Shown: piece by piece, positions 16,357 through 59,996 of the stretch
Layout of the letters: each line of letters starts with the position of its first letter
Position numbering within the stretch: position 1 is the first letter of the stretch
The notes under the pieces: model-generated
What the model saw: the letters and a program-made list of their open reading frames with translations, nothing else
What the model was told of the DNA's origin: nothing
The model's database searches: none
Assembly (NCBI GenBank): GCA_944990035.1
Contig: CALYLX010000106.1
Span: 124,001 to 188,000 of the forward strand
DNA length: 64,000 bases
Direction: 5' to 3'
Source: Clitopilus passeckerianus
Taxonomy: Eukaryota > Basidiomycota > Agaricomycetes > Agaricales > Entolomataceae
Made by a program: the position numbers and the translations under genes

Positions 16357-18008
16357 ATGCATCCATGCTTGGACGTTGCTGAGATACGGCTTGCAATAAC
16401 CACATGGACTGGGGTTAATGGGAATTTAGATTGGCCATTCTCGACAGGGGGAGACCGATGCTCCCTGGTGGCTTTGGCTCAGACCTGTCGCGCTTTCCAA
16501 GGTCTGTTCCACCTGATATCGTCAATGAATGAAATGGTGAATCCAATTACATGCACAGATCCCGCCCTCGATGTCCTTTGGGAGGGGCAATTTAGTCTAT
16601 CCCCCCTGCTACAGACTCTACCCGGCGATCTATGGGATACTCGACATGGTAATAACACAATCGTGAGGATGATCCTGCTGGCTGCAAGGCCTGTGCTCCG
16701 CTAACAGTTAGGACATGGTGCTGTTCACAGTTCTTTGTTCGATGCCTCCGGGAAGATGACTGGGGGAGATTCGACTACTACAGCTCCAAGATCCGCACCT
16801 TGTGTCTCTATACCCATAGACTGCAAGTTGGCGTCGATGAGGCGGCCCTTCGGCAATTATCCACCTACCGCCCAGCCAGGTGCTTATTGCCGCGGCTTGA
16901 GCACTTTCTTCTCATTCTGGAAAGCGATGTCATTTATCCTTGTGTGGATTACTTGCCAATTGTGTTGGGAGATTCCCTCGGAAAGTTTACCCTGCTGTGT
17001 GGTCGGAATATAGGCTCCGATAGTCTGAGTCTACAACATCTTCTAAGTTCCATGAAAAGGTGCTGCCCGAACTTGCAGGCTGTCGATCTTGGACATTTGG
17101 CGGATTTGCCCAACTCCCAATGGGTCAAAGACACATTGTATATGTTTCTTCACAACCTCACAAGCCTAAACTCCCTTTCCTTCAGCCTCCATAACATCAC
17201 ACATAATCTTATGCGCAACATAGGAAGACTCCCCAGACTATCATCCCTCTCTATTAGTTGCAACTACGACGATGATAACGGGGAGCCGGAAGTTTCTTTT
17301 ATACCACCATTCATACCAGCTTCATTTACCAACACCTTCACGGAGCTCAGGCGTTTGGAACTGTTCAGTATTGACATAGAAGCCCTCAAGACCATTCTAA
17401 ACCACGTATCATCTACTCTCATCCTACTTGAAGTGGAATGCCCCCCTAGTCTTGCTCATTTCAACGAGCTAATTGACCCCTTTCGTCGTTTCGTTGACTT
17501 GACAACTCTCAACTTGGACTTCACAGAGCTCGACTTCCCCACCATTAATGAGGATTTGGACACACTCTCCTCTATCCTGTCCCTTTCAAAGATTCGCATA
17601 ACTCTACTGTGGGGGTTCCCAAGTCGCGCAGTGACGGATGACTTCTTGCGCCGCATTCCGGAGGCATGGCCGTGCTTAGAATCACTTGCCGTTTCTCTTC
17701 AAGGGGATACAAGCATGACTCTAGCGGGCCTCATTCCCATCTCGCAAAACTGCACGAACTTGAAGGGGCTCAACATCATTCTTATCTGTCGCCCATTCGA
17801 TGTGAAGCAGATTGATTTGAGTCGCAGAGTCAGCGGTCTCCAAGACTTGGTTCTCGTCCGCTCGCCTGTCGAACAGCCGTTGGCAGTGCTACGCTGCCTC
17901 CACCTTCTTTTCCCGAGGTTGGAGCGAGCTCAAGCGGAACCAGATCACGATGATGAGGATTCTGTGCGGTCCAAATTCAGCAATGCACTAAAGGAAGCAT
18001 TCCTCTGA
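16357..18008 (+). CDS. F-box/leucine-rich-repeat protein, intact, opposite strand
   Basis: Exons 16357-16501, 16559-16662 and 16731-18008 total 1527 nt (508 aa). The F-box is MHPCLDVAEIRLAITTWTG to LVALAQTCRAFQ, followed by DPALDVLWEGQFSLSPLLQT and LPGDLW. I end exon 2 at ACA ATC|GTGAGG, because the earlier GTAATA donor would break the frame. Exon 3 begins FFVRCLREDDWGRFDYYSSK and has LRR-like segments (LPRLEHFLLILES, LTSLNSLSFSLHNITHNLM, LRRLELFSIDIEALK), ending KFSNALKEAFL. It is the only member of this family on the plus strand, and its LRR sequence is the least like the gene at 10.4-12.0 kb, which suggests an older duplicate. A role as an SCF adaptor is inferred from the F-box. Confidence 0.85.
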
Positions 18009-36750: not shown

Positions 36751-37299
36751 TTTCTTCCTTATTCAATGGGTTTAGGCTCGAGATCGGATAGCATTGAATA
36801 CATTGGTGGCAATATGAGACGCGTACGAGGCTGAGACTTGCTCCGGTACAAAAAAAAAAGCATGGAGTTGAGCACTGACGAAGACAATACGGGCTCTAGG
36901 CGCGATATGTAACAAGGCGAGTAAGTGCTACCGTAAAGGTGTAAGAAATTTGTGGCACCTTTCGAAGACTCGGGGGAACTGTAAGCAATGTGGGGAAATC
37001 GTACGTAGTAAGGGAAACTAGAAGGCATAGCAAAGGATGAGAGACATGTAGGGCATAGCTCGTCGGTTTGATATATCATAGAGAAACGGAAGTTCACCGA
37101 GAGAGTATCGTACAAAATGAACCATATATGAAGTGACTACATAGAGAGGCCTTGGATCGAATACTTGAAGAAACATTAAAACGGAACGAAAGCGTCGAAG
37201 TGAAGAGTGCAACTTGAGAACCTTCGACACAAAGGAGCGAATGTCCTCATCAGCCTCATCCCCGAGCAAGATGGCCAAAGTACTTGATTTGTCGGCCAC
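36751..37299 (-). repeat. 3' flank shared by the HET genes
   Basis: Sequence downstream of the first HET gene that recurs downstream of others (about 40010-40620, 44300-44600 and 50000-50470). Landmarks are a GAGGCTGAGACTTGCT-like word and a GGCATGTAG word followed by a CATATxTCAT word. It includes the decayed C-terminus VADKSSTLAILLGDEADEDI. It is best read as a duplicated 3' UTR and downstream flank. Confidence 0.6.
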
Positions 37300-37509
37300 T
37301 CAGGTTAAAACAGCGATCCCTAGATGATCATAACCCCCCAAACCCTTAGACACTACAGTGATTTCCTGGCCCAGCTCTGGCAGTCCCAACCGATATTCCT
37401 CCATCCCCGATTTGCATTCAACGATACTCCAAATGTGTGCACTATAAACCATCAAAGAAACTCGCAGCCCCTTGTTTGTGAGCATGTAGGCTTGATCGGT
37501 AGGGCGGGA

Positions 37510-39642
37510 TTAGCGCCAGGTAAAAGATGTGTCCTTCGGTGGTTTGGTTATGAAGGGCCGTAGCGGAAGAGGGGAAAAGCAACCCGCGTTCGCAGCGAGC
37601 ATACTATTGAAGGGGGAAGGGTGTCCAGTCCACGCAAATAACCCCATGTCTCCGCTGCGCTGCAGAATCTCCACCTGCAAACGATGGAATGCCATGGCCC
37701 CTTCCCCATATGCGATAGACATGGGAATCTGTAGCAAACCGATAAGACAATACGCCATATCCTCAATTCGAGTGGTTTGCCGCTTCGATACCCACGTGAG
37801 AGCATCTCTGGCGTGGTTGATACCGGCAGCAAAGGTGAGAAGCTGATTGGTGTCAATCCCTGTAATTTCGGAGATTGTCTTCCAGAGAGGAATACCCAAG
37901 ACGCTATCAGGGACCTTGTCGTTCCCCCCGGTGCTACTGGCAATGCGACCCCAAGATTTTCCAAAGAAGAGTATTCTTTTCGGAGCCAAGAGCTCCTGCA
38001 GCGTCCAGCCCCTTTTAAACCATGGATCGTTTTTGAAGGCGGCAGAACTGGTGGTCGTGGCAAGGTGAACTATGCAAACCCTGGCGTCTCGGTACCAGTT
38101 GAACATCGATCGAATGGACTCCTCGAGCTCGGCACTCCTGCTCTTATCGATGCAACCAGTATCAAACCAGACGAATTTGCAGTCGTATTGGGATGCAACG
38201 TCGCAGAATTCGACGAGCTTGACGAGGTCCTGGCAACGGGCTCGCTGGCTGTATGATAGCACATCGCAAATTGCCTTCATTCCCTTCAGCAGCCCCGAAT
38301 CCTCCCCCTCCTTGTCCGTAGAAGTGTGACCAGCTACGAAGTCCAAGATCTCCCTACCAGTTCGTTTGGTTGTGCGATCCTCGGACAGCTTCTGAAATCC
38401 TTCTACGGAAAGCTCTCCAAGCTTCGATACGTGCTGGAAGGTTAACTCGCCCATATCAAGCCACCGATGAGAGAAAATAGCATATGCCGTCTGCTCCATG
38501 ATCCATTCCTCCGTAGAAACCCTAATTTCATCCTCGGTTAGATCAGCCCAGCTTGAGCTGTTGTCGATAGGTAAAAGCTTATCAATGACCTCCACGATGG
38601 CAACTTCAATGTAGCCTTTGATAGCACCCCTCCGCACAAGTTTCATGCCTTCAAGCTTAAGAAGATATATCGGAAGCTGGTTGTGAATGCACTCATCCAT
38701 GAAGTTGTGGATGGCTTGGTTAAGAAGGTTCAAGGGTGATTTACGTGTCCGAAGGTGGATAGACTTACCTTTGATATAGGCGACCTTGAAACAGAAACTA
38801 AGGGAATCTATTTATGCGAAACAGATAATGGAAGTACATACCCTCTGGAAAGCAAAGAAAAGGCCGTTGACGGAGATAAATAAAGGTTAGTTAGAAACTT
38901 ACCCGCTGAGAACGAGGTTAGAAAACGAATAGAGGTCGCTGGATGATTTGCTTACCCACTAAAGACAAGATCAGCAAGTAAATGGAAAACGCTAAAGAAT
39001 TCACTTACTAACTAAAGAGAACATCAGCGCACGAATGGAAGTTGCTGGACGAGTCACTTACCACCTGAAGATGATTTCAGCGAGCAGGTGGACAACGCTG
39101 AAGGATTCACTTACCGCCTGAAGACGGGATCAGCAAGCAAACGGACAATCCTGGAGGACTTGCTTACTGCCTGAAGGCGACGTCAGAGGGCGAATAGACG
39201 TCACTGAACAATACACCTACCCATTGAAGGCAACATCATCAAGCGCACTGACAATGCTGGAGGATTCACTTACTTCCTGAAGACGACATCAGCTAGCAAA
39301 TGAGCAATGCTGGACGATTCACTTACGTCCTGAAGACGATATCAGCATGCGAGTTGAGAACGTTAGGTGATTCACTTACCGCCTACAGAACAGATCAGCG
39401 ACCGAATGGATAACGCTGTACGAGTCACTTACCGCCTGAAGATGAGGTTAGTGAGTCAATAACAACACCGAACGATTTACTGACGGCCTGAAGACGGGGT
39501 CAGCAGGCGAATTGACAACACTGGAGGTTTAATTTACCGCCTAGACATACAATAGCGTCTCTCGTCTAGCTTCTAATATTGAGTCTACACAGAATGAGGA
39601 AGATCTTCAGTCTATGAGCAATTTTCGAAGGTGAGCTACCAT
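37510..39642 (-). CDS. HET-domain protein 1, C-terminally truncated
   Basis: The main exon is 38714-37510, preceded by a 16-nt exon (38784-38769) and an array of 14 three-base exons up to a probable start ATG at 39642-39640. The array gives 15 residues before the 16-nt exon, and the total is about 421 aa. HET-domain motifs: YAIFSHRWLDMGELTFQHV, CKFVWFDTGCIDKSRSAELE, ESIRSMFNWYRDARVCIVHL and WFKRGWTLQELLAPKRILFF. After SFTWR comes TAA (37512-37510). The frame continues with PTDQAYMLTNKGLRVSLMVY to a second stop, TGA at 37302-37300, so about 130 residues present in the paralogs are lost. One array unit has lost its AG. The HET domain remains whole, so either a short protein or a young pseudogene is possible. 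HET domains trigger cell death in ascomycete incompatibility; the role in basidiomycetes is not established. Confidence 0.75.
38842..39642 (-). other. Microexon array of HET gene 1 (14 three-base exons)
   Basis: Exons of three bases start (low coordinate) at 38842, 38903, 38956, 39009, 39062, 39115, 39168, 39221, 39274, 39327, 39380, 39433, 39485 and 39538. Nearly all repeat at 53 bp, so each intron is 50 nt. In transcript order the codons are Ala x4, Asp, Glu, Trp, Ala, Ala, Val, Leu, Trp, Arg, Arg, with no stop. The unit at 39221 has CAA instead of CAG before the codon, and the donor after the codon at 39485 is GTCAGT. Both look like decay and would cause skipping, which keeps frame. The first exon, ATG|GTAGCT, has a weak donor and is the least certain part. 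Confidence 0.75.
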
Positions 39643-40008
39643 CACCCCAGTCCAAACAAACAGCCTATCCTCTCAGGTCGCCTTCAAGCGTTCTCCACTC
39701 CGACCCAAGGAATACGAAGCACCTTCGCGGCTACTACCGCTGCCTGCCATACGACACCCTGGCTCACAACAAGCTCTTCGCTCCTTCCTTGCTGATCGTC
39801 TAGAACCTCCTACACCATCACCGACGTACCCTCTTCACCTACCACCATCTAGTCAAACGGAAAGGGTCTTACTATTCCCCTCCCATCTTCTTTTCTCTTT
39901 TCGGAGGGACTTTTATTATTCGATCCGGTGTTGATATACGATAGTCTGAGGAATACCATGGTCGTGTTTTACTCTTCCTCTTATTTTCCAAAGTTGTTTC
40001 TTTCTTGA
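39643..40008. other. Duplicated sequence between HET cassettes
   Basis: It has no gene. Positions from about 39,850 on resemble 49,820-50,010 (shared words CATCTTCTTTT, TCTGAGGAATAC and ATGGTCGTGTTTTAC), so the flanks of the HET cassettes were copied along with the genes. Confidence 0.6.
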
Positions 40009-40620
40009 TCAGATGGTTTGGGCTCGAGATAGGCGAGCATTGGATATATTGAGTGCAATGACGAGACGAGGTTGAGACTGCTCTGATAGGTTAGTACGGA
40101 ATGAGCGATGACGAGGACGGTGCAGGCTCAAGGCGCGACATGCACAAACAAGTCTAGTGTACAGTAAAAAGTCCGTTTTGGGAACCAGCCACAAAGGCTC
40201 AACGTAACGGTAAGCAACGCGAAGAAAGGACCTAGTCAGGGGACATGAAGGGATAGCAAAGAAAAGGAGGCATGTAGGGTTCGCATATGGCATAGGGAAG
40301 AACAGTCCTGCATGATATGTAACAGATCCATGTAAGTGGTACCGTAAAAATGTCTGTTTCGAAGACCAGCCAAGAACTCAACATAACTGAAAGGAATCAG
40401 GAGAAAGCATAAGTAGCAAGAGAACTAGAAGGCACAGCAAATAAAGAGAGGCATGTAGACGTGCATATGTCATCGAGAAAATCCAGTCTACAGCGGAGTA
40501 TCATACTAAAGAGCAATACGTAGAGCGGCCATGGGGTGAAGACGTGAACAAAGACTGGAAAGAAATTCAAGCGGTAAAGTAAGAGCATAAGTTGGGAACC
40601 TTCGACGTCCGGTCAGCCTC
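40009..40620 (-). repeat. Two tandem copies of the HET 3' flank
   Basis: The segments 40009-40300 and 40330-40620 resemble each other and the 3' flanks at 36.8-37.2 and 50.0-50.5 kb (words AGGCATGTAG, GACCAGCCA and CTCAACATAAC/CTCAACGTAAC). Small open frames here are traces of that repeat, not genes. Confidence 0.6.
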
Positions 40621-40681
40621 ATCATTTGTCAAAGGAGTTGTCCAGCTCACCTAGTGAAGTCGTCACAGCTCGTCGTAAAAC

Positions 40682-42970
40682 TCAGTCGATGAACCTGGTA
40701 ATGGGCTGCTTCGTTTTCGGGATAGGAGATAGCACGATGTGCTCCCAAGTTGGGATTCTTGTGCAGCGATTGCCCCGGATACCAAGCAGAATAGCCAAAG
40801 TACGTGATTCATCCGCCAACCCAGTTAGAACGGCGATCCCTAGATGATGATAACCGTCCAAATTCCCAGACACAACGATGATTTCCTGGTCCAACAGCCC
40901 TAATCGAGATTCCACTGTCCCTAATTCGAAGGCGACGTCGCTCTGACTCTTAATCGTCGCGCTGTAAACCACCAAGGAAATCTGCAACCCCTCATTCGTA
41001 AGCATAGTAGCCCGATTGGGGGGAGGTGCTTTGTCCCAGTTGAACTCCGGGTCTCTCTCTGGCTCGGTCGTTACCGGTTGGAGCGGAAGAGGGGAAAAGC
41101 AGCCTGGATCGGCTGCAAGCATACTATTGAAGGGGGAAGGGTGTCCTGTCCATGCGAATAAGCCCATGTCTCCACTACGCTGCAAGATCTCCGCCTGGAG
41201 CCGATGGAATGCCATAGTCCCTTCGCCGTATGCGATAGACATGGGGATCTGTAACAAACCGATAAGGCAATACGCCATGTCCTCGATTCTAGTGGTTTGC
41301 CTTTTCGATACCCATGTGAGGGCGTCTCTGGCGTGATCGATGCCAGCAGTAAAGTTGAGGAGCTGATCGGTGTCGATCCCTGTAACTTGGGAGATTGTCT
41401 CCCAGAGAGGGATACCCAAGACGTCATCGGAGACCTTGTCATTCCCCTCCGTGTTGCTGGTGAGACGACCCCAGCCATTCCCAAAGAAGATGATTCTTTT
41501 CGGAGCCAAGAGCTCCTGCAGCGTCCAACCCCTCGTGAACCATGGATCTCGTTCGAAGCTCTCCCAAACGACGGTTCGAGCGGAATCAAAACACGTGGTG
41601 GTCTCGGCGAGGTGAACTATGCAAATCTTAGCTTCACAGTACCACTTAAACATTGATCGGATGGACTCTTCGAGCTCGGCACTGCTACTCTTATCGATGC
41701 AGCCAGTATCGAACCAGGCAAATTTGCAGCCATACTGCGATGCCATGTTGCAGAATTTGAGGAGCTTGATAAGGTCCTGGCAACGCGCTTGTTGGCTGTA
41801 GGATAACCCATCACAGAACGTCGTCAGCGCCCTCAGCAACCCCGATTTCTCTTCCTCCTTCTTGGCTGTAAACGTGGAATCAACTAAGAAGTCCAGGATC
41901 TCCCGGCCGGTTCGTTCTGTGGTCCAATCTTCCGCAAGCTGCTGCAATCCTTCAACGGAAATCTCTCCGAGCTTCAACATGTCCTGAAAGGCCAATTCGC
42001 CCGTGTCAAGCCACCGATGAGAAAAAATTGCATATCCCGTCTCCTTCGTGATCCATTCGGCCGCACTAGCCCTGATATCTTTCTCGGATAGACGCCCCCA
42101 TGAGATGCTATTAGAAGGTAAAAGCTCGTCAATGGCTTCTTGAACGTAGCCTTTGACAGCGCCCCTCCGGACCAGTTTCATACCATCAAGCTGAAGGAGA
42201 TATATCGGAAGTTGGTTTTGAATGTACTCGTCGATGACATTGCGGATAACTTCGGTCAAGGACATTCAATGGTAGTTCATTTCTGTTCCAAAGGATAAAA
42301 ACGTACTTTCTGAGTAGGAGGCCTGGTAAGCAGAAGTATGGGAACGAGCATGCCAAGTAGATAATCAAAGTACCTACCCGCTAGAGCACAAAGAAAGGCC
42401 ATCAACATGGATCAAAGGATTCTGTAATATGACTTACGACCTGAAGACAAGATCAGCGAGCGGGTGGACGAGCTTGGATGATTGACTTACTTTCTGAAGA
42501 CGAGATCAGCGAGCAAATGGACGACGCCGGATGATTCACTTACTTCCTGAAGACAAGATCAGCGAGCGAATGGATGAGACCGGATGATTCACTTACTTTC
42601 TGAGTACGAGATCAGCGAGCGAATGAACGAGACTGGATGATTCACTTACTGCCTGAAGACGAGGTCAGGGAACGAACGGATGACACTGTATGATTCGCTT
42701 ACCCGCTGAAGACCAGATCAGCGAGAAATTGGACAAGACAGAATGGTTCACTTACTGCCTGAAGACGACATCAGGGAAATAATGCATGACAGTCGATGAT
42801 TCACTTACCCGCTGAAGACAATATCAGCGAGCAAATGGACGAGACTGGATGGTTCACTTACGTTCTGAGACGAGGTCAGGGAAATAATGGATGAGGCTGG
42901 ATGATTCACTTACAAACTGAAGGCGAGATCAGAGAGCAAATGGACGAGGGCTGTTCATGATACCCACCAT
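40682..42970 (-). CDS. HET-domain protein 2 with microexon N-terminus
   Basis: Fourteen exons: ATG (42970-42968), eleven three-base exons, a 16-nt exon (42322-42307) and the main exon 42249-40682. The 16-nt plus main exons total 1584 nt, and the full protein is 539 aa. The N-terminus reads MFNRARAKEKVR-ASYSE-IIRNVIDEYIQNQ. HET motifs: GYAIFSHRWLDTGELAFQDM, CKFAWFDTGCIDKSSSAELE, ESIRSMFKWYCEAKICIVHL, WFTRGWTLQELLAPKRIIFF and RIEDMAYCLIGLLQIPMSIA. The C-terminal 170 residues (ETIS to PITRFID) are shared with HET3 and HET4. The intron before the main exon contains an in-frame ATG (MSLTEVIRN) that HET4 lacks; it could allow a shorter start without the array. Confidence 0.88.
42378..42970 (-). other. 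Microexon array of HET gene 2 (11 three-base exons)
   Basis: Low coordinates of the exons: 42378, 42438, 42491, 42544, 42597, 42650, 42703, 42756, 42809, 42862 and 42914; the start codon is 42970-42968 with donor GTGGGT. The period is 53 bp almost throughout. Introns share GTAAGTGAATCATCC at the 5' end and variants of CGCTGATCTCGTCTTCAG at the 3' end, with a CTGAT branch-point candidate about 15 nt from the AG. Codons in transcript order: Phe Asn Arg Ala Arg Ala Lys Glu Lys Val Arg. All acceptors are AG and all donors GT. Confidence 0.87.
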
Positions 42971-44180
42971 ATCGAGAAAGAATACAACGAAGCTAGTTTT
43001 CAAACAAGCCAAAAGGTAGGTAGGAGAGAACGGAGGTCGAAATAAGGATGAAGGCAAGCGCAAAGAGACAGAAACTACCCTTTCGGTTGGTTGGTTTAAA
43101 ACGATCGCCTACATATCAATCATCCCGATCGCAGCCCATCGATTGATTGATGCATGCACCGTGCGAGTGAGCTGGACAGGTGGATATCAGGGCATCTATC
43201 CGCCAAGCTTAGATGGTATAAGGGACGTAACCACATCTCTGCAAGTCGCCGATGCTCTTTACAGGTTGGAAACGGAATAACCAGTCCCATTGTATTATCG
43301 AGATACTAACAGAGTGACAATACGAAGAGTCCTAGTGATCACATCATATGCGATCTGGCCGAACAGAATGCAATACAGCCTCGCCTAACACATGGAAGCG
43401 CTCATCCATCGATTAGGTGCTACTTCGAGAATCCGAAGGTCGGGGGACACCATCAGGATACGACAAGCTTAACAGATTGAGCGCGTTTCAAACACGTTCC
43501 CGTGGCCTGGATCGCTCTGATGGAGGTAATCCTGGTTTACGGAGTAAGAGACGGGGTGCTTCGTGTTCCTCCTTTGGACTAGGCGGTAGGCGCGGATTCC
43601 TGAAGGCGACCTGTGCGGGGTTTGTCAACTCTAGCATCAAACCACACCAGGACACGCTAGGCATACCTTTGCCGCAGACTTGTCTTGCTCGATCAATGCT
43701 ATCCTTGAAAGCCTTCGGACCATGGGTGAGTTGAAAGAGCGAAGTACGCCATTTCATAGCCCAAGGATATTGAGAAGCTTTGGGTGATATTCGAAGGGGA
43801 GGAAAGTTGGGAAAGACCGCTGTGACGCTTGACATCACTCTTGTTACGAGTCTGAGTATTACTCGGAATCGAACTTTACGGTCGCGATGTTGTGATGGCA
43901 CGTTATTACATAATTTAGGTACTTATCTATTGTTATGTTCATTTCTTCGCGTTCGATTGGCTTGAAACTATTATTCTCCTAATTATTTCTCCTGTCGATG
44001 CCAAACAATGGAGGGAGATTGATGGTTCCGTGTTTAGAACGCTCAATTTGCCTTTTTAGGGCTCCCGGCATGATGGCGGCTTGACCATATCAAACCAATG
44101 TCCCAGCTTGTCGGGTCGTGACTGTTGTCTGTAATAATCGTATTTTTTTTTTAAGGAACTCATGCCCGTTCATAGGATGG
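42971..44180. repeat. 5' flank of HET gene 2, duplicated upstream of HET gene 4
   Basis: The stretch from about 43,130 to 43,900 resembles 53,280-54,150: GCAGCCCATCGATT, CTACTTCGAGAATCCG, CACCATCAGG, TGGTTTACGGAGTAAGA versus CGTTTAGGTAGTAAGA, and AACTCTAGCATCAAACC. It probably carries the promoter region. The minus-strand frame 43488-43901 is a trace in this repeat, not a supported gene. Confidence 0.6.
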
Positions 44181-44623
44181 CCTAAGATGGCGCCGTAGGC
44201 CGCCAGACGCAGACTCGTAACTGCCGCACCAAGAATTTATGACGGCCCTCCCCCAAGATGTTGGTATGCCGGTAGGAGAGTGCCAGCGGGTGCAGAGAGA
44301 TCAGACGACGGCGACTTGCCCACAAGCCAACACGGAAAGAAGCAGTATTGAAACTCGACGTAAGGGTCAGCAAAGTGAACATAATATACATTGTCAGAGG
44401 ATAGGAGGGCATAACAAAAGGGAAGCATGTAGGTTGTGCATATATCATGGAGAGACAAGCAGTCCGTCGACGAAGTATCGTACACAAAGGAAGAACGGCC
44501 AATTGAATAAACGCATTGAAGTACGGGGGTAAACTTCAGATTCTTCAACGATCCATTAGTCGGGTAATATAGTCAAAGAAATGATGTAGCTCACCCGGCA
44601 AACCAGATCAGCCCAGCACATGC

Positions 44624-47600
44624 CTAATTGATAAACCTAGTAACGGGCTGCTTCATTTTCGGGATAGGAGACAGCACGATATACTCTTGCGTCGGGATCC
44701 TCACGCAACAATCCCCCTTCATCCCAAGCAAAATAGCCAAAGTCCGTTTTTCATCAGCCACCCCAGTCAGAACAGCGATCCCAAGATGTCGATACCCTCC
44801 CAACTTCCCCGACACCACAATAACTTCCTGATCCATGTCCATTAGTCCAAGATGAGTTCGAACCACCCCCGAGTTGGGTGCCTCTTTGATGACTTCTTGC
44901 CTATGAATGTACGCTCCATACACAGGCAAGGAAATCCGCAGCCCTTTGTTCGTGAGCACATACGCATGATCGGTAGACTGAGCTTTATCCCAGAAGAAAG
45001 TGCTCTCCGTCTGTGGTTCGGTGACGAGGGGTTGTAGGGGAAGAGGACGAAAGCATCCCGGATTCGCCGCGAGCATAGTGTTGAAGGACGAACCCATGCC
45101 CGTCCAAGCGAACACCCCCATATTCCCACTCCGCTGCAGAATCTCCACCTGCAACCGATGAAATGCCATACTCCCCTCCCCATACGCAACCGACATCGGT
45201 ATCTGCAACAACCCAATCAAGCAATACGCCATATCCTCAACCCTAGTGGTTGACCTCTTCGATACCCAACCAAGAGCGTCCCTCGCATGCTCAATACCAG
45301 CATCAAAATCCAGAAGTTCCCTCGTCTCAATCCCCGTAACCTGAGAGATTGTCTCCCAGAGCGGGATACCCAGCACTTCATCGGGGACTTTATCGTTTGG
45401 CTCCGTGTTCGTGTTTGGCGTGATACGACCCCAAGTCTTTCCAAAGAAAAGAATCCTCCTCGGAGCCAGAAGTTCCTGCAACGTCCATCCCCTAGTGAAC
45501 CACGGATCACTCTCGAAAGTCCTAGGGGTGGTCGTCTCCGCGAGGTGTACGATGCAGATCTTAGCGTCCCGGTACCAGTTGAACATCGACCTGATCGACT
45601 CCTCCAGCTCGGCACTTCGACTTTTATCAATGCACCCCGTATCGAGCCACGCGAATTTACACCCGCAATGGGAGGCGATCGTGCAGAATTCGATCAGCTT
45701 GACTAGGTCCTGGCAGTGGCGTCGTTGGGAGTATGAGAGGTCGTCACAGAACATCTTCATCTCGCTCAGTAGCCCCGCTGGATTCTCTTCCTCCTTGGTC
45801 TTTGGGGTGGCGCCAACCTGAGCTTTCGAAAGTTCACCACCACGCGCACGTAACCACTTCACCATCTCTCTCCCACTCCGTTCGCACCGTTCCTTCGTAA
45901 TCTCCTCATTCAATTCCCGAAACCCCTCCACAGGAATCTCCCCAATCTTCAACACGTCCTGAAACGTCAACTCCCCCATCGCAAGCCACCGATGCGAGAA
46001 AATCGCATAACCCGTCTCCTCCGTGATCCATCTCGCCGCCGCAGCTTGAATCTCATCCTCAGTGCGGTTGATCCATTCCGTAATTTGATCAAAAGGTAAC
46101 AAGCGGTCGATGAAGGCATTGATGGAGGTTGAGAGGTGGAATTTGATGGAACTTCGGCGGAGGAGGTGCATGTTTTGGAGGTTGAGAAGGTAGATTGGGA
46201 GGCGGTTGTGGATGTGCTCATCGATGACGTTGTGGATGACTTTTGATTAGAGGGGGTTGAGCTGAGGTTGGTTTGGGTTTTGGAGGGGGAGGAGACGTAC
46301 TTTGGATGTAAGGCGCCTTGGGAGCGGGTCACCAGTCTGAAGCAAGCATGATTGAGGTACGTACCCTCTGGAGGAAGAATAAAACGCGTCGAGAGAGATA
46401 ATGTGAGGTTATACACGACGCTAGATATTTCACGTACAAGCTACCAACGAAATCATTAAGCAAACGGGACGAAACTTGGGATAGTAAGTAACTTACGCCC
46501 TAAAGACCAGATTAAATCAGGTTGAGGAATGAACAAAATCACCAGAGCGTAATTTGCTTACTTCCTAAACCCGAAATCAGCGAGCATATAAACCGAGCTC
46601 GACGAGTCACTTACTTCCTGAACCAAAGATCAGCAAGCCAACGAGAGTTTTACGGAGTGTGTTTACTCACTCTCTAGAGACGAAATTATCAGGAGCGAAT
46701 GAATGAAACTGGATAAACTACTTACAAGCTGAATACGAATATGAGATAAAGAAGCGGGCATCAGCGGGTTATTGATCACTTACAAGCTGAAGAAGACGGG
46801 ATCAGCAAGCGAATAGATTAAATTAAATCATAGCAAGCTTACTTTCTAGAGACGAGATCAGCGAGCGAGTGGAGAGAGACGGATGAGAGGTTTGGTACTT
46901 ACGTCCTGCAAGGGCGATTAGAGTCAACTAAGGGTTGAGTGGGTTGCTTACGAGCTGAGGATGAGATTAGCAAGGTGAATGCGGGTGAGAGCTGGTTGAT
47001 AGAACCGCTTGACACGTACTCTCTGAGGACAAGCTCAGCGAAAAACAGAAATTACATGAGACCAGAGGGCTTACTTCCTGAAAGTAAGATCAGCGAACCG
47101 ATTAGGAAGGGTTTTACGGGATTGTCACTTACTCTCTAAGAGTAAAATAAGGAACGAAATTGGATCCAGGAGAATTGGCTTTGAGATTTGACTACTCACT
47201 CTCTGAGGCTACATCAGCAAGGGAACGAATGAGGGGTCATAACGGGGCACTTACGTCCTGAAAACCCAAGATTAGTAAGTGAACGGGTGATATCAAATGA
47301 GCACTTACTTTCTGAAGGCGAGGTCGGCGACGAAGTACTGGTGCAGGATGGTTTACTTACAGTCTGAAGGTGTCAGTGAGATCGGGGAGAGGATGGGATT
47401 GCAAAATGCTGGGTGAAGGGCTTACTCTCTGGAAAAAAACCGAACTGAGCGAGTGAATGTGCCTTTCCAGGTGATCCAATTACGTCCTGAAAGTGGGATG
47501 AACGAGCGAAAAGGTGAAATTAGAACGTTCACTTACACCCTGAGAATTACATAGATGAGGGACCAGCGAGAGAAAAGGCATCATAAGACGTTGAACGTAC

Positions 47601-48287
47601 GCTCTGGAGACGAGATCAGGCGAGTGGACGAAACTGGGAGAATCACTTACGGGCTTGAGATGAAGTTACTCGGTGAGCGAATAGATTGAACTGGATGGTC
47701 ACTTACTCTCTGAAGGCGGAATCGGCGAGGGGTTGTTTGGTACTGAATGATTCACTTACTTCCTATGGAAGGTGTCAGAGTTAGCGAATGCGTAGATGGA
47801 TTAAAGTTGGTCGCTGCACGTACTCTCTGAATGCGTTCAAATGATTTGTCAATTCAGTCGGTTTCCTTGAGGACCGTACGCACGTTCTGCCGCCACAAGT
47901 GAGCGTCATTGCAACTTTAAACCAAGATTACACACACCCACTAAGAGCCGCGATATCAGCCTCTTTGTTTCAACGTTTATTACGTCCAAGACGTTACTTA
48001 CAATCTGGCGTACATGACCAATAGAAAGGGTGAGCAGACATCTTCCTTTCAGAGGTGGTCATCACTCACGAACTGTTGGGTCGTCAGGGAATGCAGTCTA
48101 TGGTTTTTCTTAGATTGTGAAACTAGAGACATACTTCCATTCGCTGCGAACGAGTGTTAGATGGAAGCAACGACTTGAATGTACCGGATAGCTCGTACAT
48201 GGCTGGTAGGTTGATCCGTATCTGCCTGGGGTAAATATCATATCACATAGTGGTGTAGTTCATGGAAGCATTAGAAACACTCACCAT
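44624..48287 (-). CDS. HET-domain protein 3 with the longest microexon array
   Basis: Thirty-five exons in my model: ATG (48287-48285), a 27-nt exon (48225-48199, ADTDQPTSH), a 9-nt exon (48143-48135, RME), thirty three-base exons, a 16-nt exon (46316-46301, APYIQ plus one base) and the main exon 46239-44624. The 16-nt and main exons total 1632 nt; the full protein is 586 aa. HET motifs: GYAIFSHRWLAMGELTFQDV, CKFAWLDTGCIDKSRSAELE, ESIRSMFNWYRDAKICIVHL and WFTRGWTLQELLAPRRILFF. The C-terminus ends PVTRFIN. Compared with the paralogs it has an insertion of about 20 residues after GREMVKWLRARG. Its array is older and less uniform than those of HET2 and HET4. Death-signalling function is family inference only. 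Confidence 0.85.
46365..48287 (-). other. Microexon array of HET gene 3 (30 three-base exons plus 9- and 27-nt exons)
   Basis: Low coordinates: 46365, 46438, 46497, 46562, 46615, 46671, 46726, 46784, 46843, 46903, 46952, 47020, 47075, 47133, 47200, 47255, 47309, 47361, 47426, 47484, 47537, 47601, 47651, 47707, 47760, 47824, 47884, 47938, 48002 and 48070. Intron lengths vary from about 46 to 70 nt and intron bodies are diverged, yet each unit keeps AG, exactly three bases, then GT. Acceptors are CAG or TAG, with one AAG (before 47651). Transcript order begins FIWNRERPSGDRTKD and ends RRERLDKLLREEGLR. No stop occurs in 30 codons, and 21 of them encode charged residues or Leu. Confidence 0.85.
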
Positions 48288-50500
48288 GATGAGAGAAATT
48301 AGAAGAAACTTTCGTCTTGGGCAAGTCAAACGAAGTGAAAGGCAGAGACGAGAGGTTGAGAATCGAGATACGTTAGGACCATCTTTGGGGCACGTGACCC
48401 CCGAGCTCCGTACAGAGGCTCTAAGATGTCGCTTATACTCGTGGAAGCGTTCTTGCCGTCCTGGTCCTAGTACCTTCACATCATCATGGTTCCGCAAACC
48501 CAACACTTAATATACAACCCCCGGCTACCGCTTCCTCCTCTAAAGGACTTGGAGGGCAGCACGCTCTTGAGATCTTCCTATGTGGTCGTTCACATCTTCT
48601 CCCACCGTCAATGACATCTCCCCATATACCACTCTCGACCCACCTCACTGCTTGAACGCCGTGGAAACAAGCGCTTTCTGTACCTCTCAAGAGCGAGGCC
48701 AGGTATAACAGGAACGTCAAACAGACGAATTATGACGGACGACGCGGTGAAGGCGAAGACATAAAAGAAGCGGTGGGGACGATGGTCGGGAGGATTAAGT
48801 GGGCAGGCTATTGCAGCTCTCGAACAGCTTGACGACGAAGACGATGGCCCAACTTCAACCGCCTTCATTCTCGTTCGTCACTGTCCTCGACCTCAGCACC
48901 AAGTTTTAGCAACGGCACAGGCGGGTTGACTGGTACATTCGCCACTAACAGAAGACGCCACCTAAGCTGGAGTCTATACCTTTGTCTTTTCACACACCCT
49001 AACCCCAGGGATACAGAGCGCCTTGCCTCTTCCCCAAAAATTCCCCAAAAAACGGCCTACCTCTATCAAGACGACGACAGAAACAGCAACCTCAGCGACG
49101 CGACCTCTTCGGACCCTCCCCTCACAGACCTTCAAATCTCAATACACCCCAAATAATGCACTATTACCCGCCGCCATCGACTCTCGTTACTGCCCTCGGG
49201 TCTATGACTTCTCGGCGAACTTAGGCGGCAAATGTCGTGTTTACCCCCAATAAAGGCTGCAGCAGCTCGGCCAATGGCCCAGAAGAGTACACTGCTTCTT
49301 CGCATTCGAGATGTTGGGAATTGGATCACCGGAGGATAGACCCACACTGGTGCTAGATATTCTTCGCCTTCCTCTCAACAACACGGCTGCCAAATTAGTC
49401 AATTCCATACCTCTGACCCGCGAGTTCTGCCTGGTTTCGGTGGATGACTCAGGATTCTAATAAATGCCTTGCAGGCGCCTACCAGTCCAACAAGAAGAGT
49501 ATCCTCTAGCGAGTGAGAATAACATCCATCTCGGTGGGAACGGTATGCACTGTGTGTCCCAGTGTTCTTTGGACTCGTACTAACGGATTTGGGACAGGTT
49601 ACTTCTACGAAGCATTCTTCGTGCTCACCGGTCATACCGACCTTTCACATTATCAAACTGGAAACCCGAGGAACACGAAGCACATCGCCTCTTGCTCTCC
49701 AGACGGCGAATATCGCTGTCAGGACGCTGCTCAGCCCTCCAGAGTCAAACATCGCGGAAGCATACTCCTTCCGTACCTCCTGAGGCATGGAACGGCAGCG
49801 TATCAGAGGAACCGATGTTGGTAGACGAGGCAGAGGCAGTCTGTGGGGAAAGTCGAACAGAAACGGTGTTGCTATCCTCTCGCATCTTCTTTTTTCTGCA
49901 GGGACTTTATCATTCGATCTGGTGCTTGATACATGATGGTCTGAGGAATACAATGGTCGTGTTTTACCTTACGTCTTCCTTTGAGAATCGTTTCTTCCTC
50001 GATCGGTTGGCCCGGGCCAAAGATAGGACAGCATTGAACACATTGAGTGCAATGAGAAAACGAGGCTGAGACTTGCTTGGGTAAGAGAAATGTTACGGAA
50101 TGAGCCCTGACGAGGACGATGCAGGCTCTAGACACGATACGTAGGGGAAACTGGTACCGTGTAAAAGTGTCCGTAACGAAGACTAGCTGAAGATGTCGAT
50201 GTATCTATAAGCCATTCGGAGAAAAGCATAGTAAGGGGAAACAAGAAGCATAGTAATGAAAGGGAGGCATATAGGGTATGTATATGTCATGGAGAAAGAA
50301 GCAACGCACCAATAGAGTATCGTACAAAACGTACCATATGTAAAGAGTACATAGAGTGGCCATGGTGTAAAAAGAAATAAATAAAAGTGTAAAAGTGAGA
50401 GGGTAGCTGGAGGACGTTCTTGACACAAGAGAAGGGATGAACTCGTCGGCCTCATCATTCGTCAAAGTAGTTATGTAGCTCACCTAGGGAATAATAAATT
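48288..50500. repeat. Spacer with HET flank copies and dispersed-family traces
   Basis: The trace EEPMLVDEAEAVC (plus, about 49,810) belongs to the dispersed family. Sequence from 49,820 to 50,470 resembles the HET 3' flanks at 36.8 and 40.0 kb. Frames at 48.2-49.6 kb are short and lack family signals. Confidence 0.55.
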
Positions 50501-53134
50501 CACTCGATGAACCTGATAATGGTCTCTGGCATCATCAGGATAGAAGATAAGATGATGTGGTCTTGGGTCGGGATCCGTAGGCAGCGATCTCCATCCATAC
50601 CGAGTAAGATACCCAAGGAACTTGTTTCGTCGGTCAACCCGGTTAGAACAGCGATACCGAGATGATCATAAACCTCCAAATCCTTCGACACCACATGGAT
50701 GTCCCAGTCCAGCTCTGTCAATTCCAACCAATATCGCTCCAACCCAGTTAATTTTCCATTCACTTCGTCGGGCTCACTTCTCCGAATATTTGCATTATAT
50801 ACCACCAGAGGAATCTGCAACCCGATATTCGTAAGCATGTAAGCCTGTTTAACAGAGCGGGGTTGGCCCCAGTTAAAATTTGTATCCATTGGTGACTTGG
50901 TTATGAGGGGCTGGAGTGGAAGAGGGGAAAAGCATCCCGCATTGGCTGCGAGCATACTATTGAAGGGGGAAGAGTGTCCTGTCCAAGCAAATAGGCCCAT
51001 GTCGCCGCTGCGCTGCAGGATCTCCACCTGGAGTCGATGAAATGCCATATCCCCTTCGCCATACGCGATCGACATCGGGATCCGTAGCAGACCGATAAGA
51101 CAATACGCCATGTCCTCAATTCTGGTGGTTTGCCTTTTCGATACCCACGTGAGGGCATCTCTGGCGTGATTGATACTAGCAGAAAAGTTGAGAAGGTGGT
51201 TGGTGTCAATCCCTGTGCCTTTGGAGATTGTCTCCCAGAGACGGATACCCAAGACGTCATCAGGGACTTTGTCATTTCCCACCGTGTTATCGGTGATACG
51301 ACCCCAGGATTTGCCAAAGAAGATGATTCTTTTAGGGGCCAAGAGCTCCTGCAGTGTCCAACCCCTCGTGAACCATGGTTCGCTTTTGACGCCTCGCCTC
51401 CGAGCCAGAAACAAGGCCCGGGGACCCTCGACGAGGTCGTCATAACTGGTGGTCTCGGCAAGGTGGACTATGCAAATTTTAGCGTCTCGATACCAGTCGA
51501 ACATTGATCTGATGGACTCCTCGAGCTCAGCACTGCTGCTCTTATCGATGCAGCCAGTATCAAACCAGACATATTTGGAGCCGTATTCCGATGCTATGTT
51601 GCAGAATTCAACGAGCTTGACAAGGTCCTGGCAACGGGTTCGTTGGCTAGCTAATAGCGCATCACAGAACGTCTTCATCCCCTTCAACAACCCCAATTTC
51701 TCTTCATCCTTCTTGGCCGTAGACGTGGAACCAACTAAGTAGTCCAAGATCTCTTGACCGGTTCTTTGCGTGGTGCGATTCTCCGAAAGATTCCGAAATC
51801 CTGTGGCCGAAAGCTGCCCGAACTTCGATACATCTTGGAAGGTCAACTCCCCCGCATCAAGCCACCGATGAGAGAAAATTGCATATGCTGTCTGCTGCCG
51901 AATCCATGTGTTTGCACTAACCTTAATATCTTTCTCGGTTAGGTGCTCCCACTTTGACCTGTCATCAGGAGGTAAAAGCTCGTCAATGAACCTCACGATG
52001 GCGCCTTGAAGGGGGCCTTTGACAGCGCCCCTCCGGACCAGTCTCATGCTATCAAGCTGAAGGAGATATATCGGAAGTTGGTTTTGAATGTACGCATCAA
52101 TGACGTTGCGGATAGCTTCGGTCAAAGAAGGTCAATGGTGGTTCAATGTGGCTCCAAAGCACAAACGTACTTCCTGAATGGGAGGCCTGGGAAGCAGAAA
52201 TAAAGTTGCGGGTTTTAGGATATCATACCAAGTGGATAATCAAAGTACGTACCCGCTGGCCCAAAAGAAAGGCTATCAACATGGATTAAAGAATCCTGTG
52301 ATATGACTTACCAGCTGAAGACAAGATCAGGGAGCGAACAGAAGAGACTGGATGATCTACTTACTTCCTGAAGACGAAATCAGCAAGCGAATGTACGATA
52401 CTGGATGATTCACTTACTCGCTGAAGACGAGATCAGCGAGCAGATGGACAACGCTGGATGATTTTCTTACAAGCTGAAGACGAGATTGGCGAGCGAATGG
52501 ATTAGGCAAAATGACCTACTTACCCGCTAAAAGACGAGATCGGTGTGCGAATGGACGAGTCTGGATGGTCCACTTACTTTCTGAAGACGAGATGAGAGGG
52601 CGAATAGAGGAGCTTGAATGATTCATTTACTTTCTAACGACGGGATAAACGAACGGCTTGACAAGACTAGATGATTCACTTACTTCCTGAAGACGAGATT
52701 AGATAGCGAGCAAGCGAATTGATGATGCTGGATGATTCACTTACTGCCTGAGACGGGATCGGCGAGCGAATGGACTAGACTAGATGACGTACTTACTAAC
52801 TGAAGACTGGGTCAGCGTGCAAATGGATAAGACTGTATCAATCACTTACTGCCTGAGGACAAGGTCAGCGAGCCGAGCACGGGGGTAGGCAGATGTGGAT
52901 GATTTACTTCCTGATGATGGGATCAGCGAGCGAATGGGCGACACCGAATGGTTCACTTACTAGCTGAAGACAAGATCAGCGAGCGGATGGACAGGACTGA
53001 ATGGTACAATTACTCGCTGGGGATGAGGTCAGAAGGCGAATGGACGAGGCAGTATGTTTAACTTACTTGCTGAAGACGAGGTTGGCAAGCGAATGAACAA
53101 GTTGTGCACAAGCGTTGTTCGTACCACTCACCAT
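50500..53134 (-). CDS. HET-domain protein 4 with microexon N-terminus
   Basis: Nineteen exons: ATG (53134-53132, donor GTGAGT), sixteen three-base exons, a 16-nt exon (52186-52171) and the main exon 52115-50500 (16-nt + main = 1632 nt; protein 560 aa). The N-terminus reads MQRLEALAEKKRLRELR, then ASHSG, then TIRNVIDAYIQNQLPIYLL. HET motifs: YAIFSHRWLDAGELTFQDVS, SKYVWFDTGCIDKSSSAELE, ESIRSMFDWYRDAKICIVHL and WFTRGWTLQELLAPKRIIFF. Relative to HET2 it has about ten extra residues (ALFLARRRGVKS) before WFTRGW. The main exon has no ATG upstream of MRLVRRGAVKG, so the upstream exons are needed for a full-length product. It is closest to HET2 in sequence, flanks and array. Confidence 0.88.
52253..53134 (-). 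other. Microexon array of HET gene 4 (16 three-base exons)
   Basis: Low coordinates: 52253, 52312, 52365, 52418, 52471, 52524, 52578, 52631, 52684, 52745, 52797, 52850, 52908, 52961, 53014 and 53067. The period is 53 bp for most units, with 58-61 bp at three places. Every unit has an AG acceptor and a GT donor. Codons in transcript order: Gln Arg Leu Glu Ala Leu Ala Glu Lys Lys Arg Leu Arg Glu Leu Arg. This is a strongly amphipathic, highly charged helix-like segment, not what random triplets would give. Intron ends match those of the HET2 array. Confidence 0.88.
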
Positions 53135-55596: not shown

Positions 55597-57096
55597 TTAC
55601 GGCTGTTCTACGGGTAAGTCCCCTAGAGCCAACGATTGAACGCGGCTGACTCTGGGGCTGGAGTCAAGTTGCTTTATCTCGAAGGGTTGGCAGATGACAA
55701 AGACGACAAGCTCTTCCAGCATTGTGCATTCCTGCGAGATGGGGATTAAACCTGCGAGGGTCATGCATGTTTTCTCGTGGAACTTCGGAATCGCATGGAG
55801 CGATCGTAGGCATGGCCAGGCCTCCGGAATATAACTCAGAAAGTCATCAGTCAATGCGTTATCTGGAAATTCCCGCAGCTGAACGGATTGAAGCTTCCGA
55901 AGAGTTAGAATGGGGGAGAGTACAGTGGTATCTCTCGGGATGGCAGGGTAGAAGATGACGTTGTAGAATACGAGGTTGAGGGATGTCAAGTGGGTGAAAC
56001 GATGAAGAGGGTCGATCAGCTCAATGAAATTGGTAGATCCATGTGCACCGGAGGCGTCAATTTCTGTGAGTGTGTTCGGTCCATGGTTTAAGAAATTCTT
56101 GAGGTCCTGCGCTCCAATGTGGCCCAGTTCCACATATCTGAGTTGGGTGAAGGCGTTGGACAGGGAAGCGGCCGTGAAACGAGCTATGGGTCCTTCGGAC
56201 CACAGATAGGGGTGAGAAGCAAAACGGTCGTGGGGATCGTCAATCAGAAGTCTGGATAACTTGGGGAGTTGTCCAATATCGTGTATGAGGTTAGGCGTAA
56301 CGGCTGCGAGGGCCAAGGTGAGGATCTTGATACTCTTGAAGCTGCAGAGGAATGATTCTAAGGTGCGACCCGCCCTCGGAGCTATCACAGCTGTATGCAT
56401 AAGTATGCGGTCCACGTTAGGGCAACATCTTGCTATCGGATAGAGAAGATCTGGAAGACTGTTATCATCATGGGCTGAGTGGTTCTCGTAGACTGAGCCT
56501 AGATAGATGTTGTCTATCTCAAGCGTCGTAAGAGTATCCCCCAGAAGAACCGGGAGATACTCTATACAGTGAAATGTATTAACCGTTCCTAGAAGTAGCT
56601 GAAGATGCTCGAGTCGAGGCAATGGGTGTTTGGCCGGCCTATGCCTAGATAAATGCTGAAGGACAGACCCGTCGACCGGGGTTTCTACAGTCAAAATGCA
56701 AATCTTTCCGCCATAGTACTCGAACCTATCCCAGTCGTTCTCCGTGGGGCTTCTGAGTAACTGTCGTATGGTCAATCATAAGTAACCTCCCCGACGACGC
56801 CTAATTCCGCACTCACGACTGGTGCACCGTCGAAACTCCACAGGTCACTCGGCATCACTCGCACAAGTTGTAATAAGCTATGCTGGAGTTGCCAAAGAAC
56901 ATCAAGTGCGGGATCTATGCACAGGGATGAGTTAAAAAGCCTTCGTTCAAAGGTCTGTAGAATCAAACTTCTGACCTTGAAAGGATCGGCAGGTCCGAGC
57001 CAAAGCTGCGAGAGAGTACCCGTACGAGCTCTCATATCTTGTAAACGACGTGGAAATAGCGACCCGTATCTCGGGAAGCTCCAAGCATGGATGCAT
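55597..57096 (-). CDS. F-box/LRR protein of the MHPCL family, shortened at the C-terminus
   Basis: Exons 57096-56976, 56914-56817 and 56760-55597 total 1383 nt (460 aa). The F-box is MHPCLELPEIRVAISTSFTR to LAALARTCRSFQ, then DPALDVLWQLQHSLLQLVRV and MPSDLW. Exon 3 begins LLRSPTENDWDRFEYYGGK and carries LRR-like segments (LPRLEHLQLLLGTV, IKILTLALAAVTPNLIHDI, LRYVELGHIGAQDLK). It ends DLPVEQP with TAA (55599-55597), where intact paralogs continue LAVLRCLHLLFPRL. The old frame is still visible past the stop (AVLRCISHLFPNLRKM), as is a C-terminal trace in another frame (ELRELSTAFRAAF). About 50 residues are lost. The F-box and most repeats remain, so it may still work. Confidence 0.8.
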
Positions 57097-57915
57097 CGTA
57101 CTATCAGAATGCAATCCAACTTGAAGTCAAGACGGATTCGGAGTTTCCCGAAATGCATGACGGTACAGTATGCCCATGCAGAACAGATTTTTACCAACCT
57201 CTTACAGATGGGTATTCCCGTAGATGGTGAGAAGCAGGACCTAAAGAGATCTTCCACAATTACAGAGGGCTGTAACTTGAAGAAACGTGCCAAGGGCGCT
57301 CCCGACCTCAAGCGCTCAAGCACCGCATCTCAGATTGCATCGGCCAATAATCAGTTTGCAGGCCGGAGCTGAATCTTCTCTTCTTCTCCCTCTGAACGGA
57401 TTCTTATCCTTTTTCTTCAACGTAAACTTGGAGAGCCTTTCATTTATTCTCCCCTTGATTTCAACCAATAGCGACTATGGACAGTTGTAGCCACACCTAC
57501 CCGACAAATTGGACCGATATTGTACGACGAAGCCGTGCGTTCTGTTTGGTCACAGTGCAATGTTCATGATTCAGAATTCTAAGATCTGCTTGCAGGCTCC
57601 TGCGAGAGTCCCAAACGGGCTGACTATTCTTCCTCTGAAACTTGAAACGGCAACATCATTGGAGAAACTTATGAGGGCGGGGTGGCGAGGTAGACGCGAT
57701 ATGTATGATAATTGAAGGTGGTGCTTTCTTGACCGCAGGGCGAGTAAGTATGCAGCAGGTCGCCAGAAAATCTCGAAGCCTTAGATAAAATCTTGAACGG
57801 ACAGAAGTAGAGAAGCGGAATCCATGGAATTGGAATAATATGAATATTTGACAATACGAATTATAGTTAAGCTTTATTGCGTTCTATACCCATCAACTTG
57901 GCCCAGCATGTCACT
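57097..57915. other. Spacer, mostly without signal
   Basis: A short dispersed-family trace (LKLETATSLEKLM, plus, about 57,640) is the only thing recognised. It also holds the 3' flank of the oxidase gene. Confidence 0.5.
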
Positions 57916-59943: not shown

Positions 59944-59989
59944 GTTCCGTTAAGTTGTTCGATGGAGAGACACGGTGAAGAGCCATGGC

Positions 59990-59996
59990 TTTTATA
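59990..59996 (-). promoter_or_regulatory. TATA box of the secreted FAD oxidase
   Basis: TATAAAA on the minus strand (TTTTATA as written), 47 nt before the ATG. Its position and match are good for a TATA box with a short 5' leader. Confidence 0.6.

What the first reader, a model, noticed from the sequence alone, without database searches (positions are those of the whole stretch)
38769..53134. Arrays of single-codon (3-nt) microexons ahead of four HET-domain genes
Seen: upstream of each HET exon on the minus strand, units of about 53 bp read GTAAGT...CAG NNN GTAAGT...CAG NNN. I count 14, 11, 30 and 16 units, 71 in all, each with exactly three bases between acceptor and donor (one unit has lost its AG). 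A start codon ending directly at a donor (ATG|GTGAGT in HET3 and HET4, ATG|GTGGGT in HET2) opens the array, and a 16-nt exon closes it. With this model exon sums divide by three and all four genes are open. Known: very short exons exist, but I know of no gene built from a serial run of dozens of single-codon exons. Inference: this is a new gene architecture that builds HET N-termini codon by codon.
Basis: partly seen in the sequence, partly recalled or inferred. Interest (0 to 1): 0.97.

Follow-up and report, generated by a model that had tools for sequence, protein, structure and literature searches.

The report
Single-codon exon arrays in mushroom immune-type genes
In this mushroom-related fungus, at least 21 genes of one self/non-self-type family appear to spell the start of their protein one codon per exon, with up to about 85 three-letter exons in a row; some of these codon strings look protected by selection and others look reshuffled, and a truffle gene family is a published precedent for such tiny exons.

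Summary
The arrays are real. All 71 window units were recovered (70 with both AG and GT). A splice-chain model with exon length left free returned 3 nt for 767 of 820 internal exons, the runs lying in 21 of 24 related HET gene places of the genome; strand, reversal and rest-of-window controls gave none. The codons carry a coding signature: 0 stops among 766 (about 44 expected) and 59 of 61 sense codons used. In three allele-like pairs all 5 changes among 76 codons are synonymous although introns differ by 5-10%. In two other pairs codons differ far more than introns (alignment sure in one), and in one near-homogeneous array most near-identical units differ in codon, usually at 2-3 bases. Best reading: genuine single-codon exons encode an N-terminal tail, conserved in some genes and reshuffled in others. 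New here, as far as my searches reach: HET genes, a probable agaric, the N-terminal position, tandem-repeat introns, and codons more variable than the introns around them. No RNA data or related genomes were available, so inclusion is inferred.

The parts
52253..53069 (-). HET4 array: 16 single-codon exons (Q R L E A L A E K K R L R E L R), unit about 53 bp
   Evidence: the free-length model kept 15 of the 16; one has a weak donor
53132..53134 (-). HET4 start codon ending directly at donor GTGAGT
52171..52186 (-). HET4 16-nt exon GCCTCCCATTCAGGAA (ASHSG+1 nt)
50500..52115 (-). HET4 main exon with HET domain; proposed acceptor is AAG
46365..48072 (-). HET3 array: 30 single-codon exons, intron lengths about 46 to 70 nt
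   Evidence: the free-length model kept 25 of the 30
48135..48143 (-). HET3 9-nt exon CGAATGGAA before the run (model)
   Evidence: a 9-nt exon also in the C155 partner
48285..48287 (-). HET3 ATG ending at donor GTGAGT
46301..46316 (-). HET3 16-nt exon GCGCCTTACATCCAAA
   Evidence: read by eye; in-frame counterpart in g15
44624..46239 (-). HET3 main exon with HET domain
   Evidence: its first base read by eye
42378..42916 (-). HET2 array: 11 single-codon exons (F N R A R A K E K V R)
42968..42970 (-). HET2 ATG ending at donor GTGGGT
42307..42322 (-). HET2 16-nt exon GCCTCCTACTCAGAAA (the free-length model read only its last AAA as a 3-nt exon)
40682..42249 (-). HET2 main exon with HET domain
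38842..39540 (-). HET1 array: 13 codon units plus one that lost its AG, two weak donors
   Evidence: the free-length model kept 11
38769..38784 (-). HET1 16-nt exon GTCGCCTATATCAAAG
37249..38714 (-). HET1 main exon region; frame broken by a stop at 37510 and a second stop further on, homology continuing in the same frame

Best explanation
Each array is a run of true coding exons of one codon each, separated by short introns with strong splice sites. Spliced in order, they give the HET protein an N-terminal tail, mostly charged, of roughly 11 to 85 residues after the start codon, joined (in the window genes) through a 16-nt exon to the HET main exon. How the splicing works is inferred: introns of about 50-70 nt are recognised one by one, 5' to 3', so each step adds a codon to the growing upstream exon and brings up the next donor, much like recursive splicing with a 3-nt remainder; skipping units would keep the frame. 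How the tail evolves is partly shown: the repeats are homologous intron-plus-codon units, so unequal exchange and conversion between units (inferred) can change copy number and swap single codons. In some genes the codons are held constant, in others they are highly variable. The proposed role, inferred from the family name only, is a specificity tail for a HET death-effector in self/non-self recognition.
For: (1) Exon length free, 767 of 820 internal exons are 3 nt, in runs in 21 of 24 related gene places; none in controls. (2) 0 stops in 766 codons against 43.7 expected by within-gene column shuffling, minimum 29 in 2000; joined codons have stops 0/767, 19/714 and 48/714 in frames 0, 1 and 2. 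(3) Three allele-like pairs: 76 aligned codons, 5 synonymous and 0 amino-acid changes; exon substitutions 5/228 nt against intron core 476/5578. (4) The 16-nt exon links array phase to main-exon frame in 6 genes by script and a seventh by eye, with similar peptides. (6) Within arrays, pairwise difference at exon bases against intron core is 0.62/0.07 (g4), 0.52/0.11 (g1), 0.67/0.30 (g12). (7) In g4, 22 of 29 unit pairs with flanking introns at least 96% alike differ in codon, 20 of them at 2-3 bases; in g1 3 of 15, all at 2-3 bases. (8) Codon-to-intron association is weak and in three of five arrays lies near the exon, as exchange between units would leave. (9) 254 of 256 genome-wide hits of the tandem pattern lie in these HET genes.
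Against: No RNA or protein evidence. No genome of a relative could be read; ten relatives' predicted proteins show no such tail, and a search with one codon string attached found none in its listing. The synonymous-only pairs were set apart after seeing the data: over all seven compared pairs it is 112 same, 11 synonymous and 52 nonsynonymous of 175 codons, and the g1/g4 register is uncertain. Units share descent, so the stop statistic overstates independence. In g5 exon and intron core vary equally (0.73). The codon-to-intron association is absent in g3 and marginal in g1, with 20 tests uncorrected. Including 60-85 codon exons in every transcript would need very high fidelity. Three of 24 family places lack arrays. 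No amphipathic-helix periodicity in 18 of 21 tails.
Confidence: 0.72

Rival explanations
1. Codon exons are real but included variably. Because every subset keeps the frame, each gene makes a mixed population of N-termini, as stated for Tuber nank genes and flatworm micro-exon genes. Compatible with the best explanation, but function lies in splice diversity rather than in one fixed tail.
For: The codon exons are 3 nt, so skipping them never shifts frame; arrays of up to 85 make perfect inclusion unlikely; alternative splicing is stated for the Tuber precedent.
Against: Synonymous-only change in three pairs suggests a particular string matters; splice sites are strong (GTAAGT 364 of 766 donors, YAG 764 of 766 acceptors). 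No isoform data either way.
Confidence: 0.4
2. The array is a decoy: one long intron made of tandem intron-like repeats, always removed whole, with the N-terminus given by the ATG exon and the 16-nt exon.
For: In the window genes the ATG exon ends in phase 0, so it is in frame with the 16-nt exon even without the array; tandem repeats can spread without function.
Against: Nothing would then keep 766 triplets free of stops, keep the exon at 3 nt while introns vary, or limit changes to synonymous ones in three pairs.
Confidence: 0.08
3. Pure satellite expansion: units multiply neutrally in decaying genes, and the codon pattern is a relic.
For: HET1, g2 and g6 main exons are broken and the g1 and g4 arrays are near-homogeneous 69-bp repeats.
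Against: The main frame is 512 aa or longer in 18 of 21 array genes (in g7 the TAA that one search reports lies just ahead of the main exon). Codons are far more diverse than introns in the homogeneous arrays, opposite to a neutral satellite.
Confidence: 0.05

Closest known systems
Tuber melanosporum NACHT-ANK (nank) genes (Iotti et al. 2012; seen only through citing passages in PMC4986451, PMC3689799, PMC9815663, PMC10197012)
   Same: Tens to dozens of 3-bp exons in an expanded fungal family linked to non-self recognition; possible protein diversification codon by codon.
   Different: There: ascomycete NLRs, with the exons said to diversify the C-terminal recognition domain. Here: HET-domain proteins of a probable agaricomycete, N-terminal arrays, homologous tandem units, codons more variable than introns in most arrays. 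Whether the Tuber units are homologous repeats I could not see.
Micro-exon genes of schistosomes and tapeworms (PMC7653826, passages)
   Same: Runs of consecutive short exons divisible by three; exon skipping keeps frame.
   Different: Those micro-exons are counted up to 70 nt, in flatworm genes; not runs of uniform single-codon units in a HET family.
Recursive splicing with ratchet points (PMC8605326, start of abstract in the listing)
   Same: Acceptor and donor adjacent; stepwise intron removal with a new donor at the junction.
   Different: Ratchet points juxtapose acceptor and donor; here a codon lies between and would be left each time. Stepwise removal itself is inferred here.
Podospora HET-E/NWD genes with WD40 repeats (PMC4986451 and PMC9815663, passages)
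   Same: Recognition region made of near-identical repeats reshuffled by unequal exchange, joined to a HET domain.
   Different: There the repeat is a protein repeat; here the repeat is an intron and each unit contributes one codon.

Membership tests
HET domain proteins (PF06985) | Match to the Pfam profile above its cut-off | tested here: met
   33.2, 34.1, 41.7 and 38.1 bits against a cut-off of 22.5, over 52-56 of 146 profile positions, in the four window main exons
Tuber nank-type codon-exon genes | Dozens of exons of exactly 3 bp | tested here: met
   767 of 820 predicted internal exons are 3 nt with length left free; 11 to 85 per array gene
Tuber nank-type codon-exon genes | NACHT and ankyrin domains | tested here: not met
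   Pfam finds only HET (E up to 0.01) in the four window main exons; spliced tails and the other genes were not scanned
Tuber nank-type codon-exon genes | Codon exons in the C-terminal recognition part | tested here: not met
   Arrays lie 5' of the HET exon
Tuber nank-type codon-exon genes | Alternative splicing of the codon exons | not testable with these tools
   No transcripts available
Micro-exon genes (criteria in PMC7653826) | At least 7 exons, at least half of them micro-exons divisible by 3, run of at least 4 | tested here: met
   Predicted models in 21 of 24 gene places; predicted, not annotated
Introner-like elements (recalled) | Near-identical introns spread over many unrelated genes | tested here: not met
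   254 of 256 pattern hits are in HET genes; only GTAAGT-type donors with a 3-nt exon tested
Recursive-splicing ratchet points | Acceptor and donor directly juxtaposed | tested here: not met
   3 nt lie between AG and GT
Functional het (allorecognition) loci | Allelic differences trigger incompatibility | not testable with these tools
   Only sequence divergence of allele-like pairs seen

The most novel reading that the evidence does not exclude
The arrays are a codon-shuffling engine. Homologous introns act as recombination scaffolds that let a genome exchange, add or delete single codons without ever breaking the frame, producing a hypervariable recognition tail on a death-effector protein; variable skipping may further give each nucleus or cell a frame-proof mixture of tails.
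Probability: 0.35. Interest if true: 0.95.

Novelty: new variant of a known kind. Interest (0 to 1): 0.87.

Why it matters
If the tails are made, this is an extreme case of small exons (up to about 85 in series, several hundred in this assembly) and a natural test of how a spliceosome handles exons far shorter than its footprint. It suggests a second fungal lineage that uses codon exons in immune-type genes, which would make the truffle case a recurring solution. It also offers a direct way to see selection on single codons flanked by near-identical introns. Annotation pipelines may miss such N-termini: none of the ten relatives' proteins that I read shows such a tail, though I could not check whether their genomes hold arrays.

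Tried and rejected
Coiled-coil or amphipathic-helix tail: hydrophobic moment at 100 degrees reached p<0.05 in only 3 of 21 tails (g4, g20, g21); most are charged, one (g3) is Pro/Gly-rich. Rejected as a general rule.

A seeming match between the g20 codon string (IQNFVEDYF) and the conserved start of other main exons (IRNVIDEY): rejected, because the g20 main exon has its own counterpart of that segment. A database search with that string plus the g20 main exon listed 120 of 7894 hits; I read only the table, which names no ortholog close to full length, and did not align N-termini.

Arrays in prokaryotes as a control: 6 stretches in genome contigs, all simple repeats or a CRISPR array (L083) whose triplet varies little or not at all; 0 in viral contigs. 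The search for related loci in genome contigs found no relative. The Iotti 2012 paper itself is not held. The first Pfam call failed on wrong coordinates.

Papers: eight searches, listings with the start of abstracts. Passages seen in PMC4986451, PMC10197012, PMC3689799, PMC9815663, PMC7653826, and only reference-list passages in PMC11121469. PMC8605326 was seen only in a listing. 'Not in print' here means not in those searches of an open-licence library.
Full report
WHAT IS THERE. On the minus strand of the window, four HET-domain genes are each preceded by a train of units of the form ...YAG-NNN-GTAAGT....

WHERE IT LIES. The window is G000:C106:124001-188000 of a 64.8-Mb, 160-contig genome. 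Several loci occur as pairs of contigs: C106/C155 (a 4.1-kb flank at 91%, inverted), C97/C157, C34/C36, C98/C101 and C13/C113. This looks like two haplotypes in one assembly (inference).

HOW MANY GENES. A tblastn search with one main exon gave 27 matches, which I grouped into 24 gene places. I assembled the upstream DNA of all 24 from overlapping pieces. 21 have arrays, with 11 to 85 three-nt exons each; C13, C113 and C26 do not. In 18 of the 21 the main frame is 512 aa or longer; HET1, g2 and g6 are broken.

IS THE EXON REALLY 3 NT? I let a splice-chain model choose introns of 40-160 nt from donor, acceptor and branch-site preferences fixed beforehand (set from general knowledge), with exons free between 1 and 40 nt and no exon base scored. 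It returned 767 exons of 3 nt out of 820. On the opposite strand it made chains of 1 to 7 introns and no 3-nt exon; on the reversed sequences, and on 7 six-kb stretches of the rest of the window on both strands (42 kb), it made no 3-nt exon (only the best chain of each stretch is reported). The model is conservative: in the window it kept 62 of the 70 intact units plus one false one, since the AAA that it calls a 3-nt exon in HET2 (and likewise in g16) I read as the end of the 16-nt exon. Median intron length after a codon exon is 66 nt, skipped units included; 364 of 766 donors are GTAAGT, 764 of 766 acceptors are YAG, and 641 of 766 introns hold a CTNAY branch motif.

ARE THEY CODING? Among 766 codon exons of the 21 genes, none is a stop, where shuffling the three base columns within each gene gives 43.7 on average and never fewer than 29 in 2000 trials; 59 of the 61 sense codons occur. 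As a comparison from the same call, the reverse-complement stop triplets occur 12 times (34.5 expected) and the reversed ones 49 times (40.1 expected), so the former are also under-represented, though not absent. Joined together, the strings have 0 stops of 767 in frame 0, 19 of 714 in frame 1 and 48 of 714 in frame 2. The units are related by duplication, so this is not 766 independent trials. In six genes (HET1, HET2, HET4, g14, g15, g16) a 16-nt exon between array and main exon carries the phase correctly and encodes related peptides (ASYSEI, ASHSGT, ASHSAT, VAYIKA, APYIQI); other exon lengths were also possible in HET1, HET4 and g14. HET3's was read by eye. For the other array genes my script did not find such a junction or found other lengths.

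SELECTION, ALL PAIRS. I compared seven pairs, choosing partners by main-exon similarity or position. g17/g5: 35, 3, 0, 10.1%. g20/g21: 16, 0, 0, 5.2%. HET4/g14: 12, 2, 5, 27.5% (main exons only 67% identical; doubtful alleles). g19/g6: 34, 2, 10, 12.4%, with g6 broken and 34 further codons unaligned. g1/g4: 42, 0, 33, 10.6%, register uncertain in homogeneous repeats. The total is 175 codons: 112 same, 11 synonymous, 52 nonsynonymous. The first three pairs, grouped after seeing the data, have 5 changes, all synonymous (chance 0.0007 at a synonymous share of 0.24), and fewer exon than intron substitutions (5/228 against 476/5578, p 0.0002). In the same pairs the main exons do carry amino-acid changes (44, 34 and 6). 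So some tails look conserved as protein.

DIVERSIFICATION. Codons such as GTC and AAA stand in the same unit with nearly identical flanks. Inside single arrays the codon bases differ between units far more than intron bases: 0.62 against 0.07 in g4, 0.52 against 0.11 in g1, and 0.57-0.70 against 0.23-0.35 in eight others; in g5 both are 0.73 (11 arrays reported of 12 asked). Among g4 unit pairs with both introns at least 96% alike, 22 of 29 differ in codon, 15 at all three bases and 5 at two; in g1 it is 3 of 15. The link between a codon and its introns is weak: p<0.05 on both near sides in g4 and g12, on the upstream near side and downstream far side in g13, on one far side in g1, and nowhere in g3 (20 tests, uncorrected). 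Exchange between units followed by selection for codon variety is the simplest account, but it is inferred.

CONFINEMENT. A two-unit pattern with GTAAGT donors has 256 hits genome-wide against 8 for the backwards control; my own count puts 254 in these HET genes. Arrays with other donors elsewhere are not excluded, since g6, g18, g19, g20 and g21 have no hit of that pattern either.

WHAT IS KNOWN. Citing papers describe an expanded NACHT-ANK family in Tuber melanosporum with codon-sized or 3-bp microexons, alternatively spliced. The original paper is not held. Flatworm micro-exon genes are a looser relative. I found no report of codon-exon arrays in HET genes or basidiomycetes, or of homologous tandem units of this kind, in eight searches.

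MECHANISM AND DOUBT. Shown: sequence anatomy, coding signature, conservation in some pairs, divergence in others. Inferred: that the exons are spliced in, the 5'-to-3' stepwise order, unequal exchange as the source of change, and a role in self/non-self recognition. Constitutive and variable inclusion cannot be told apart without RNA. HET1 is broken: the homology continues in the same frame past two stops. Tail make-up is 49% D, E, K and R overall (378 of 766), without general helical periodicity.

Noticed in passing
window 37249-39600: HET1 looks like a decaying copy: main frame broken by two stops, weak donors in the first units, one lost AG, no ATG|GT head found by the model, yet no stop among its codons.
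   Followed up: partly
window 10428-18008 and 55597-56775: Several ORFs of up to about 400 aa resemble each other (LSTYRP...LPRLE) and the one near 56 kb has a 70% match on C155; probably a gene family around the HET cluster; no domain search done.
   Followed up: no
window 57750-60500: A gene resembling FAD-linked oxidases (recalled from the sequence, not searched) has 86-87% matches at two places on C97 and 73-87% pieces on C157, two of these three places within about 5 kb of other HET genes.
   Followed up: partly
window 8722-9300: ORF reading like a small Rho/Ras-type GTPase (recalled, not searched).
   Followed up: no
G000:C36:304300-309900 (L068): One array of over 70 units spells a string with 36% Pro and Gly rather than the charged strings of most other genes.
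   Followed up: partly
G000:C106 189k (g7): The conserved protein similarity of the main exon begins right after an in-frame TAA, consistent with the main exon being entered by splicing rather than read through from upstream.
   Followed up: partly
L083:5760-6240: A bacterial MAG contig matches the train pattern because of what looks like a CRISPR array whose repeat contains CAGCTTGTAAGT; a useful false-positive control.
   Followed up: yes
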